A stretch of DNA of 27,338 bases, taken from positions 1 to 27,338 of the IMG/VR virus record IMGVR_UViG_3300044841_000030; one strand, written 5' to 3'. Shown piece by piece: positions 12,800 through 14,870 of this stretch. Every line of letters begins with the position of its first letter. The first letter of the stretch is position 1. Origin of the DNA: a virus. The notes beneath the pieces are model-generated. The model ran no database searches, was not told the origin of the DNA, and saw only the letters and a list, made by a program, of their open reading frames with translations. A program made the position numbers and the translations under genes.

Positions 12800-13035
12800 G
12801 TAAGCTTGATGAGCAAATAAAGCAAATAACGCATAGTGCTTTCCGCCACCCCGACATGCAGATGGATGACATAAAAGCTCTCCTAGCCGAGTTCACTGAG
12901 GCCATGAAAGCAGCGGTGCCAGAGAAATATACTGAAAATGATTATGGCTTAGCCCCGCATGAACAACCTTGGAACGATGCCATAGACGCAACCCATGAGG
13001 CGTTAGATAAGGTAATTAAGGAGTATTTAGGATGA
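12796..13035 (+). CDS. 79-aa hypothetical protein
   Basis: Soluble, helical, acidic protein (MSKLDEQIKQITHSAF, FTEAMKAAVPEK, ALDKVIKEYLG). ATGA overlaps with both neighbours, and a GGGGTGAGAG ribosome site. No recognised domain. It directly precedes the first of the two alanine-rich proteins and may be co-produced with it. Confidence 0.7.
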   Translation: MSKLDEQIKQITHSAFRHPDMQMDDIKALLAEFTEAMKAAVPEKYTENDYGLAPHEQPWNDAIDATHEALDKVIKEYLG

Positions 13036-13814
13036 AGGCATATTTAAATGACGCGGAGCTAAAGAAAGACTTCGTTAAAGAGATTAAGCGTCACCAAGAG
13101 GCAGACCAGATTATCCAGGGGACTTACGCCAAAGGATCAGGTAAAAACTGGAAAGGTTGTGCTGTTGGGTGTAGCATCCATTCGTTGAATCGGATTAAGA
13201 AAAAGACGTATAAAACTAGCAATCACTCAGTTTACGAGACAGAGCTGGGAATTCCTCGCCAGCTCGCGTACCTCGAAGACAGAATCTTTGAAGGCTTGGA
13301 TGTCAAAACTTCAAAAGAGTGGCCCCTCCGATTCTCGCAAGCTATTAGACCAGGCGCAGATCTGTCGCTCGTCGTGTCTAAGTTTATGGTGGCAGTGCTC
13401 AAAGATGAAAACTTCGGAGTATACAAATTTGCTCATAGGGATGGGAAGAAAGCGATTGATAATGTAGTAGCTTTATATGAGCGAAAATTATCTGGCAGTG
13501 AACCAACTCGCGAGGAGTGGCTAGAAGCTAGAGACGAAGCATCTTTGGCACGACGAGCTGCTTATGCTGCTTATGATGCTGCTTCTGATGCTGCTGCTTA
13601 TGCTGCTTATGCTGCTTCTGATGCTGCTTATGATGCTGATGCTGCTGCTTATGATGCTGCTGCTGATGCTGCTTCTTATGCTGCTGCTTATGCTGCTGAT
13701 GCTGCTGCTGATGCTGCTTCTGATGCTGCTGCTGATGCTGATGCTGCTGGACGAGACCATTACAAGAAAATGGCAGATAGGCTAATCGAGTTATTGGAGA
13801 AAGCAGGTGAGTAA
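13032..13814 (+). CDS. Alanine-rich rod protein A (Y/D/S type)
   Basis: 260 aa in three parts. Residues 1-150 form a folded domain shared with the gene at 14016, with AKGSGKNWKGCAVGCSIHS (C43, C47) as its most conserved piece. Residues 176-239 are a low-complexity helix of alanine with Y, D and S, every alanine coded GCT. A short conserved cap (YKKMADRLIELLEKAG) ends it. The rod is acidic. Similar alanine-repeat proteins are known from many phage genomes, with no function that I know of. It overlaps the gene before it by ATGA. Confidence 0.85.
   Translation: MKAYLNDAELKKDFVKEIKRHQEADQIIQGTYAKGSGKNWKGCAVGCSIHSLNRIKKKTYKTSNHSVYETELGIPRQLAYLEDRIFEGLDVKTSKEWPLRFSQAIRPGADLSLVVSKFMVAVLKDENFGVYKFAHRDGKKAIDNVVALYERKLSGSEPTREEWLEARDEASLARRAAYAAYDAASDAAAYAAYAASDAAYDADAAAYDAAADAASYAAAYAADAAADAASDAAADADAAGRDHYKKMADRLIELLEKAGE
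13066..13171 (+). repeat. 106-base identical repeat, copy 1
   Basis: Identical base for base to 14050-14155, inside the N-terminal domains of the two alanine-rich genes. Flanks diverge at once on both sides, including at silent positions. This points to recent gene conversion or strong selection on this block. Confidence 0.9.
13557..13748 (+). repeat. GCT-rich codon repeat tract in rod protein A
   Basis: 64 codons made only of GCT, TAT, GAT and TCT, that is GCT units broken by NAT/TCT codons. Near-repetitive DNA of this kind can change length by slippage in steps that keep the frame. Confidence 0.9.
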
Positions 13815-13838
13815 CCATAAAGAGCATAGGAGAGAAGG

Positions 13839-14019
13839 ATGAGTAAATGGCAGAACAACCCAACATCCCCAGACTAAGCAATGGGAGGAGGCCGAGTGGC
13901 TCGATGATTACTTTGGGAGTCACCAGTATGGGGTGAGGTTTAAGGATGAACAGATATTTAATGCAAACCTATACAAATTATCCACCAAGGAATCTAACCT
14001 AAAAGGAGGAAATAAGTGA
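13839..14019 (+). pseudogene. Frameshifted small gene between the two rod genes
   Basis: An ATG at 13839 with AGGAG upstream begins MSKWQNNP and then stops at 13875-13877. The +1 frame from there on reads as good protein (QTKQWEEAEWLDDYFGSH, YGVRFKDEQIFNANLYKL) and ends at TGA 14017-14019, overlapping the GTG of the next gene as other genes here do. The natural reading is one gene of about 59 codons broken or recoded by one base near 13850-13875. A sequencing error is also possible. Confidence 0.45.
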
Positions 14020-14870
14020 AAGCATATTTGAACAACCCCCAATTAAAAGAAGACTTCGTTAAAGAGATTAAGCGTCACCAAGAGGCAGACCAGATTATCC
14101 AGGGGACTTACGCCAAAGGATCAGGTAAAAACTGGAAAGGTTGTGCTGTTGGGTGCTCCATCCACTCACTCAATATCTTGAAGGGTAAAGAGCTTTCTAC
14201 CTCGGACCATTCAGTATACGAGAGTGAGCTTGGATTACCTGAGTGGCTTGCCAGGCTTGAGGACACTATTTTTGAGGGACTGCCAAAAGAGGACGCTCTG
14301 AAATGGCCGTTAAGGTTTGCTAAAGCCATTCCCGTCGGAGTTGAGCTAGAACAAGTTAAATGGAAGTTCTCAGCGTTTATTCTCGGTGAAAACATAGAGC
14401 GAGTTTTAATGCTAGATATATCGGATGACCTTAAAAAGCAAGTTGCCGATTCTGTGAGAGATGTTTTAACTCTCCATGAAACAGCAATTAAGACTGGCAT
14501 ATGGGATGAAAAAGCTGCTTGGGCTGCTTGGTCTGCTGCTGAGGCTGCTAAGGCTGCTGCTTGGGCTGCTGATGCTGATGCTGATGCTGCTGCTGCTGCT
14601 CGGTCTGCTGCTCGGTCTGCTGCTTGGGCTACTGCTTGGGCTACTGCTTGGGCTACTGCTTGGGCTACTGCTGCTACTGCTCGGTTTGCTGCTTGGTCTG
14701 CTGCTGAGGCTGCTCGGGCTGATGCTGAGGCTGCTAAGGCTGCTCGGGCTGCTGCTGAGGCTGCTAAGGCTGCTCGGTCTGCTGCTTGGGCTGCTGCTGC
14801 TGCTGCTGCTGCTGCTGCTTACATACGTTACGCAGATAAGTTAATTGAGGAGCTAAAAAATGCCTCCTGA
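14016..14870 (+). CDS. Alanine-rich rod protein B (W/R/E/K/T type)
   Basis: 284 aa, GTG start with AAAGGAGGA six bases before it. The same plan as the gene at 13032: an N-terminal domain (1-150) with KGCAVGCSIHS, an alanine-rich helix at 167-268, and a C-terminal cap (YIRYADKLIEELKNAS). Here the alanines are spaced by W, R, E, K, T and S, with a perfect (AWAT)x4 and a run of eleven alanines. The rod is larger and far less acidic than in copy A, so the two may bind different partners or pair with each other. Function unknown. Confidence 0.85.
   Translation: MKAYLNNPQLKEDFVKEIKRHQEADQIIQGTYAKGSGKNWKGCAVGCSIHSLNILKGKELSTSDHSVYESELGLPEWLARLEDTIFEGLPKEDALKWPLRFAKAIPVGVELEQVKWKFSAFILGENIERVLMLDISDDLKKQVADSVRDVLTLHETAIKTGIWDEKAAWAAWSAAEAAKAAAWAADADADAAAAARSAARSAAWATAWATAWATAWATAATARFAAWSAAEAARADAEAAKAARAAAEAAKAARSAAWAAAAAAAAAAYIRYADKLIEELKNAS
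14050..14155 (+). repeat. 106-base identical repeat, copy 2
   Basis: Same 106 bases as 13066-13171, encoding residues from about D13 to G46 in both proteins. Confidence 0.9.
14514..14819 (+). repeat. GCT-rich codon repeat tract in rod protein B
   Basis: 102 codons dominated by GCT. It includes four perfect copies of the 12-mer GCTTGGGCTACT (14622-14669) and eleven GCT in a row (14787-14819). Confidence 0.9.

What the first reader, a model, noticed from the sequence alone, without database searches (positions are those of the whole stretch)
13032..14870. Two paralogous proteins with GCT-coded alanine rods of different chemistry
Same head domain and end cap, but one rod uses Y/D/S spacers and the other W/R/E/K/T. 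The acidic and the more basic/aromatic rods could pair or act as long helical spacers on different partners. A phage-encoded variable rod system is not described as far as I know.
Basis: partly seen in the sequence, partly recalled or inferred. Interest (0 to 1): 0.75.

Follow-up and report, generated by a model that had tools for sequence, protein, structure and literature searches.

The report
Paired tunable phage counter-defence proteins
Two neighbouring phage genes make related proteins whose middle is a fast-changing alanine-rich helical arm; they are distant relatives of a mycobacteriophage protein that escapes bacterial anti-phage defences by changing the number of such repeats, so this is probably a much wider, previously unconnected family of adjustable anti-defence proteins.

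Summary
Genes 13032-13814 and 14016-14870 encode paralogues with the same head, an alanine rod written almost wholly in GCT (40/42 and 65/66 Ala codons) and a short C-terminal cap. The rods differ: A/D/Y/S, net charge -10, against A/W/R/S/T/E/K/D, net +2.

The proteins belong to a mainly viral family (87 confirmed virus loci; 4 hits in 84,980 genomes). Rod-free comparisons link it to the Tweety gp54 family of mycobacteriophages (phrog_3416), so such a phage protein is already described. Published work makes Tweety gp54 a tunable counter-defence protein: mutants that escape prophage-encoded defences change its number of Ala-Ala-x-x repeats.

In those relatives, 16 pairs with identical heads never share a rod. 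AlphaFold predicts the second rod as an antiparallel hairpin, not a spacer.

Pairing is not a family rule: of 50 virus records, 5 have true multiple copies (the window's virus included), and only two combine an acidic with a W/R/E rod. The two genes come from different subfamilies and share a 106-bp identical tract, which suggests gene conversion.

Most likely these are early, accessory counter-defence proteins with slippage-adjusted arms. Family and hypervariability are shown; the function is inferred.

The parts
13018..13023 (+). likely ribosome-binding site (AAGGAG) of gene 1; the start codon overlaps the stop of the preceding small ORF 12796-13035 (ATGA)
   Evidence: sequence; ORF list
13032..13814 (+). 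gene 1: 260-aa protein with acidic A/D/Y/S rod
   Evidence: homologues
13032..13538 (+). head of protein 1 (aa 1-169), AlphaFold pLDDT mostly above 90; carries the family motif GCAVGC and the pre-rod module (aa 113-155) shared with Tweety gp54
13539..13748 (+). rod 1 (aa 170-239), 40/42 Ala codons GCT; aa 176-239 all GCT/GAT/TAT/TCT
13749..13811 (+). C-terminal cap of protein 1 (aa 240-260), pLDDT 93-96
14004..14009 (+). AGGAGG ribosome-binding site, 6 bases before the GTG start of gene 2
   Evidence: sequence
14016..14870 (+). gene 2: 284-aa protein with A/W/R/S/T/E/K/D rod
14016..14513 (+). head of protein 2 (aa 1-166); closest to class-B subfamily L033-L041 (75% identity to L035 after the GCAVGC motif)
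14514..14819 (+). rod 2 (aa 167-268); predicted antiparallel helical hairpin, helices 165-216 and 222-281, turn 217-221
14820..14867 (+). C-terminal cap of protein 2 (aa 269-284), pLDDT 95-98
13066..13171 (+). 106-bp tract identical to 14050-14155: probable recent gene conversion between the paralogues
14050..14155 (+). 106-bp tract identical to 13066-13171

Best explanation
The two genes encode early, accessory phage proteins of a widespread family related to Tweety gp54. Each has a conserved folded head, a hypervariable alanine-rich helical arm that doubles back as a hairpin in the better model, and a C-terminal helix that probably returns to the head. Probable function: counter-defence. The head and cap bind and neutralise a bacterial or prophage-encoded defence (an alarmone-synthetase, toxin-antitoxin-like system in the mycobacteriophage case). 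The length and side-chain pattern of the arm set which defence variant is recognised. Arms change quickly by slippage or unequal recombination of 9- and 12-bp units, so the phage can retune within a few mutations; two copies with different arms let it hold two specificities, and the shared 106-bp tract suggests that the copies exchange sequence. Shown here: family, rod-free homology to the Tweety gp54 family, hypervariability in relatives, predicted fold. Reported by others: counter-defence of Tweety gp54 and its dependence on repeat number. Inferred: that the window proteins do the same, and the binding mode.
For: Family with head + rod + cap in 87 confirmed virus loci, only 4 hits in 84,980 genomes. 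Tweety gp54 scores 1.2e-142 on phrog_3416, head alone 7.5e-97; rod-free heads of window protein 1 and of L042 match the same profile at 8.5e-4 and 7.7e-10. Profile-profile, rod-free: probability 90%, E 1.4e-6, 85 columns. Reverse profile search: 19 of 82 real against 3 of 1640 shuffled heads at E up to 1, in one register. Pairwise BLASTP: L042 vs Tweety 7e-13; window protein 1 head vs Bobby gp79 head 2e-5, collinear over aa 17-155. Hypervariability: 38 relatives, heads all 138 aa, rods 30-194 aa in 25 lengths; 16 identical-head pairs, none with the same rod. S-A-A codons AGC-GCC-GCA in 509 of 530 units while the fourth residue varies among W/E/R/G/K/Q. Published counter-defence and tuning by repeat number. 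KPhi1 homologue lies with replication genes on the strand opposite to tail genes. Helical models.
Against: No defence target is known for any member outside the mycobacteriophages, and nothing here tests function. The similarity to the Tweety family is strong only for the 45-85 columns before the rod; the N-terminal motifs differ (GCAVGC against GKGCAMN) and protein 2 alone does not reach phrog_3416. Rod confidence in the models is 40-77, so the hairpin is provisional, and it is clear only for protein 2. The original experimental paper (Dedrick 2017) was not readable here; its result is taken from two reviews from the same laboratory.
Confidence: 0.6

Rival explanations
1. The two rods pair with each other: the acidic and the W/R/E/K rod form a heteromeric coiled coil that joins two heads.
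For: Net charges -10 and +2; genes lie 201 bp apart; L061 also has one class-B and one class-A copy in one virus.
Against: 45 of 50 virus records have a single copy; other multi-copy viruses have copies of the same class (L105 A/A/A, L101 B/B) or mostly rodless ones (G429). In the model of protein 2 the rod pairs with itself. Charge contrast is modest.
Confidence: 0.1
2. Structural spacer or fibre in the virion.
For: Rods resemble tail-fibre PHROGs weakly, and long helices occur in virions.
Against: Those PHROG matches lie mostly over the rod and look like composition; genes lie in the early block with NinG and small ORFs, divergent from terminase/portal; the KPhi1 homologue is on the strand opposite to tail genes.
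Confidence: 0.07
3. Neutral microsatellite: the rod is slippage noise tolerated in a loop of the head, without a function of its own.
For: Single-codon arrays, variable length, short-rod or rodless members (L077, L080, L097).
Against: In 530 mycobacteriophage units almost all variation is at the fourth residue while silent sites are nearly fixed; rod alphabets recur with different Ala codons; open frame and cap are kept; repeat-number change alters escape from defence in Tweety.
Confidence: 0.1
4. The head is a metal-binding or catalytic anti-signalling protein (for example anti-CBASS) and the rod only tunes solubility or oligomerisation.
For: Invariant H21, C43, C47, H65, D83; weak match of two family heads to Pfam Acb3, 1.6e-4, 43 residues.
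Against: The Acb3 match is below Pfam's cut-off and absent from the window proteins; no PDB fold match to support an enzyme; mycobacteriophage relatives keep only one of the two Cys.
Confidence: 0.1

Closest known systems
Mycobacteriophage Tweety gp54 / Che8 gp57 / PMC gp51 (phrog_3416)
   Same: Head + Ala-rich repeat rod of variable length + conserved C-terminal end; homologous pre-rod module; GC(A) motif in register; lies outside the structural operon; rod alphabets of both classes occur in both families.
   Different: Window family has its own N-terminal signature (H..AD..xGTYG..FKGCAVGC), a shorter cap, and here two copies with different rods; hosts are other bacteria.
Xanthomonas phage KPhi1 K1pha_60 and relatives (phiXaf18, XapPhi1-6)
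   Same: Same family by sequence: head about 30% identical, rod of SAAx units, cap.
   Different: Single copy, GCG-coded class-B rod.
Bordetella phage BMP-1 bbp36 variable region 2
   Same: Variable number of short coding repeats, as cited by Pham 2007.
   Different: Cited there as similar in organisation only; homology not examined here.
Acb3, CBASS inhibitor (Pfam PF25187)
   Same: Sub-threshold similarity to aa 6-49 of two family members.
   Different: Below cut-off, not seen for the window proteins.

Membership tests
Tweety gp54 family (phrog_3416) | pre-rod helical module (L.D...GViRfA...AI..VA.L.R...Ge) | tested here: met
   protein 1 rod-free 8.5e-4, L042 7.7e-10; hhalign E 1.4e-6; BLASTP 2e-5. 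Protein 2 alone gives no match; it joins through its family.
Tweety gp54 family (phrog_3416) | N-terminal GSHxPGSGKGCAMNVISYINGD signature | tested here: not met
   window heads carry GTYAKGSGKNWKGCAVGCSIHSLN instead; only GSGK/GC align. So it is a relative, not a member in the strict sense.
Tweety gp54 family (phrog_3416) | Ala-Ala-x-x repeat rod, hypervariable between close relatives | tested here: inconclusive
   rod present; hypervariability shown for mycobacteriophages and for close pairs L084/L087, L102/L106, but the window virus has only identical copies
Tweety gp54 family (phrog_3416) | counter-defence tuned by repeat number | not testable with these tools
   literature only
Acb3 (PF25187) | match above Pfam gathering score | tested here: not met
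   best family member 21.6 bits against 27; window proteins none
phage virion fibre/spacer | location among structural genes or match to a structural family outside the rod | tested here: not met
   early block, divergent from the structural operon; tail-fibre PHROG hits weak and gone when the rod is cut off

The most novel reading that the evidence does not exclude
Phages of many hosts carry a general, rapidly reprogrammable anti-defence scaffold: one fold whose helical hairpin arm is rewritten in a restricted code (A/D/Y/S or A/S/W/R/E) by repeat slippage plus strong diversifying selection or a targeted mutational process, and some phages keep two registers with different arms.
Probability: 0.2. 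Interest if true: 0.88.

Novelty: new variant of a known kind. Interest (0 to 1): 0.62.

Why it matters
Tweety gp54 has been treated as a mycobacteriophage curiosity whose mechanism 'remains obscure' (PMC8549241). Linking it to a family in phages of Proteobacteria and of uncultured hosts, with a confident head model, a predicted hairpin arm and natural two-copy cases, makes the tuning idea testable in easy hosts (Xanthomonas phage KPhi1 has a homologue). It would be a protein that adapts by changing arm length and surface rather than by rebuilding its fold.

Tried and rejected
Pfam and NCBIfam give no family for the window proteins. PDB by sequence and by fold: nothing meaningful; the fold search is dominated by helices, so it does not show that the head fold is new. 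BFVD: one uncharacterised phage protein. Acb3: below cut-off, absent in 369 Gammaproteobacterial genomes and in the controls, so that search says little; no Acb3 paper held. Neighbour clustering: few shared neighbours; the commonest looks like a DnaB-type replicative helicase, with nuclease- and repressor-like ORFs (names from my reading of the sequences). A recent in-place duplication as origin of the pair was rejected: the heads after the motif belong to different subfamilies, apart from the 106-bp identical tract. One DNA alignment of identical copies was uninformative beyond identity.

Full report
OBSERVATION. The two ORFs are real and at the stated coordinates. They share a head and a short cap; identity is 54% overall. 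Rod 1 is A/D/Y/S, net -10; rod 2 is A/W/R/S/T/E/K/D, net +2. Ala codons are GCT in 40/42 and 65/66, against 40% GCT in the other window genes. Gene 1 overlaps the stop of the ORF before it (ATGA); gene 2 has AGGAGG six bases before GTG. An identical copy of the region lies in a second IMG/VR contig, 39.8 kb, the same virus.

FAMILY. A profile of the heads confirms 87 loci in IMG/VR (80 kept) but only 4 in 84,980 genomes, plus 11 Xanthomonas phage records. Invariant over 61 members: H21, G42, C43, V45, G46, C47, H65, D83. Nearly all members carry an alanine rod between a conserved pre-rod helix and a cap; a few have a short rod or none (L077, L080, L097, L110). Each rod is dominated by one Ala codon (median 91% of Ala codons, 43% in heads), which differs between members. 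Two spacer alphabets recur: class A (Y/D/N/H with S) and class B (W/R/E/K/Q with S). Class A occurs only with GCT or GCC; class B with all four Ala codons, so class B at least seems to be held at the protein level. One member (L074) uses A-L-S/R/D instead.

LINK TO TWEETY gp54. A family member (L064) hit Mycobacterium phage Bobby gp79, which has 148 mycobacteriophage records with a match. The Tweety member is gp54, identified by the genome length 58,692 and the gene position given in Pham 2007. phrog_3416 is this family: Tweety 1.2e-142, head alone 7.5e-97. With rods removed, window protein 1 matches it at 8.5e-4 and L042 at 7.7e-10; profile-profile comparison gives E 1.4e-6 (5e-4 for the broader alignment); profile search finds 19/82 real against 3/1640 shuffled heads; BLASTP of window protein 1 head against Bobby gp79 head is collinear over aa 17-155, E 2e-5. 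The E-values are for single comparisons.

WHAT IS KNOWN OF TWEETY gp54. Pham et al. 2007 (PMC2884959) described a central array of Ala-Ala-x-x repeats, 48 in Tweety, 26 in Che8, 15 in PMC, function then unknown, absent from Llij. Hatfull 2021 and 2022 (PMC8549241, PMC9262239) report that Tweety gene 54 is a counter-defence gene: mutants that escape the Phrann gp29/gp30 or MichelleMyBell prophage defences have more or fewer repeats, which 'tune' it. The primary paper was not held.

HYPERVARIABILITY. In 38 distinct relatives from IMG/VR the head is 138 aa throughout and the cap 38 aa in 36, while rods run from 30 to 194 aa in 25 lengths. Of 16 pairs with identical heads none has the same rod. 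In 530 SAAx units the codons of S-A-A are AGC-GCC-GCA 509 times and the third base of x is G 521 times, yet x is W, E, R, G, K or Q: change is concentrated in replacement sites. In the window family, L084/L087 and L102/L106 have near-identical heads and different rods, and L101 holds two adjacent copies with near-identical heads (by the head tree) and different rods. 22 of 85 viral loci have the contig ending inside this gene, 18 of them after the rod starts, against 5 ends within a gene length upstream: assemblies break here.

STRUCTURE. AlphaFold with 61 sequences gives confident heads and caps (mostly 90-98). Rod 2 is two long helices, 165-216 and 222-281, with a short turn, at pLDDT 48-77 in the middle and better near the ends; rod 1 is broken into several helices at 40-60. 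The cap is as confident as the head, which suggests it returns to the head, so the rod is more likely a hairpin arm than a spacer between two ends; no coordinates were open to me to measure this. No PDB fold matched.

THE PAIR. After the GCAVGC motif the two window heads fall in different subfamilies, while 106 bp up to that motif are identical, including silent sites. I read this as two old paralogues, or one acquired later, with recent gene conversion. Of 50 virus records searched, genuine multiple copies are in the window's virus, L061 (2), L101 (2), L105 (3) and a 230-kb phage (7 matches); only the window's virus and L061 combine class A with class B. In L061 the copies flank an ORF that reads like a DNA adenine methylase (my reading, no profile run).

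MECHANISM. I propose that head and cap engage a defence component and that the arm sets reach and contact surface. Slippage supplies length variants; point changes at spacer residues supply chemistry. Two copies give two settings. The location (early block with a NinG-type nuclease; replication side in KPhi1) fits. The step from homology to function is inference.

LIMITS. Function untested; hairpin at low confidence; link to Tweety strongest in 45-85 columns; counter-defence taken from reviews.

Noticed in passing
window 13066-13171 and 14050-14155: 106 identical bases between the two genes, with about 50% nucleotide identity further into the heads: gene conversion between paralogues.
   Followed up: yes
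L061 4998-7581: A second virus with a class-B and a class-A copy, on either side of an ORF that reads like a phage DNA adenine methylase.
   Followed up: partly
virus record IMGVR_UViG_3300029993_000005 (L097, L110; G429): A 230-kb phage with seven matches to the head profile; the copies seen (L097, L110) lack the alanine rod. May hold the ancestral state or a different use of the fold.
   Followed up: no
window 13557-13748 and rods of relatives: Rod 1 core uses only codons GCT/GAT/TAT/TCT (64 of 64); mycobacteriophage spacers use NRG codons. Whether selection, slippage or a directed mutation process makes these restricted codes is open.
   Followed up: partly
22 of 85 viral loci: Contigs end inside this gene, mostly in the rod, so catalogues of phage contigs will undercount and truncate the family.
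   Followed up: partly
L035 3883-4014, and L033: Sub-threshold match of the head to Pfam Acb3 (CBASS inhibitor), 43 residues.
   Followed up: partly
window 63-5240, minus strand: Block of ORFs that read like sugar-nucleotide epimerases and glycosyltransferases next to the head genes; could modify the phage or host surface.
   Followed up: no
window 15042-15074: 12-bp repeat (TGGTTTGTGGTG, 2.8 copies) coding WFVVWFVVWFV in a small ORF just downstream.
   Followed up: no
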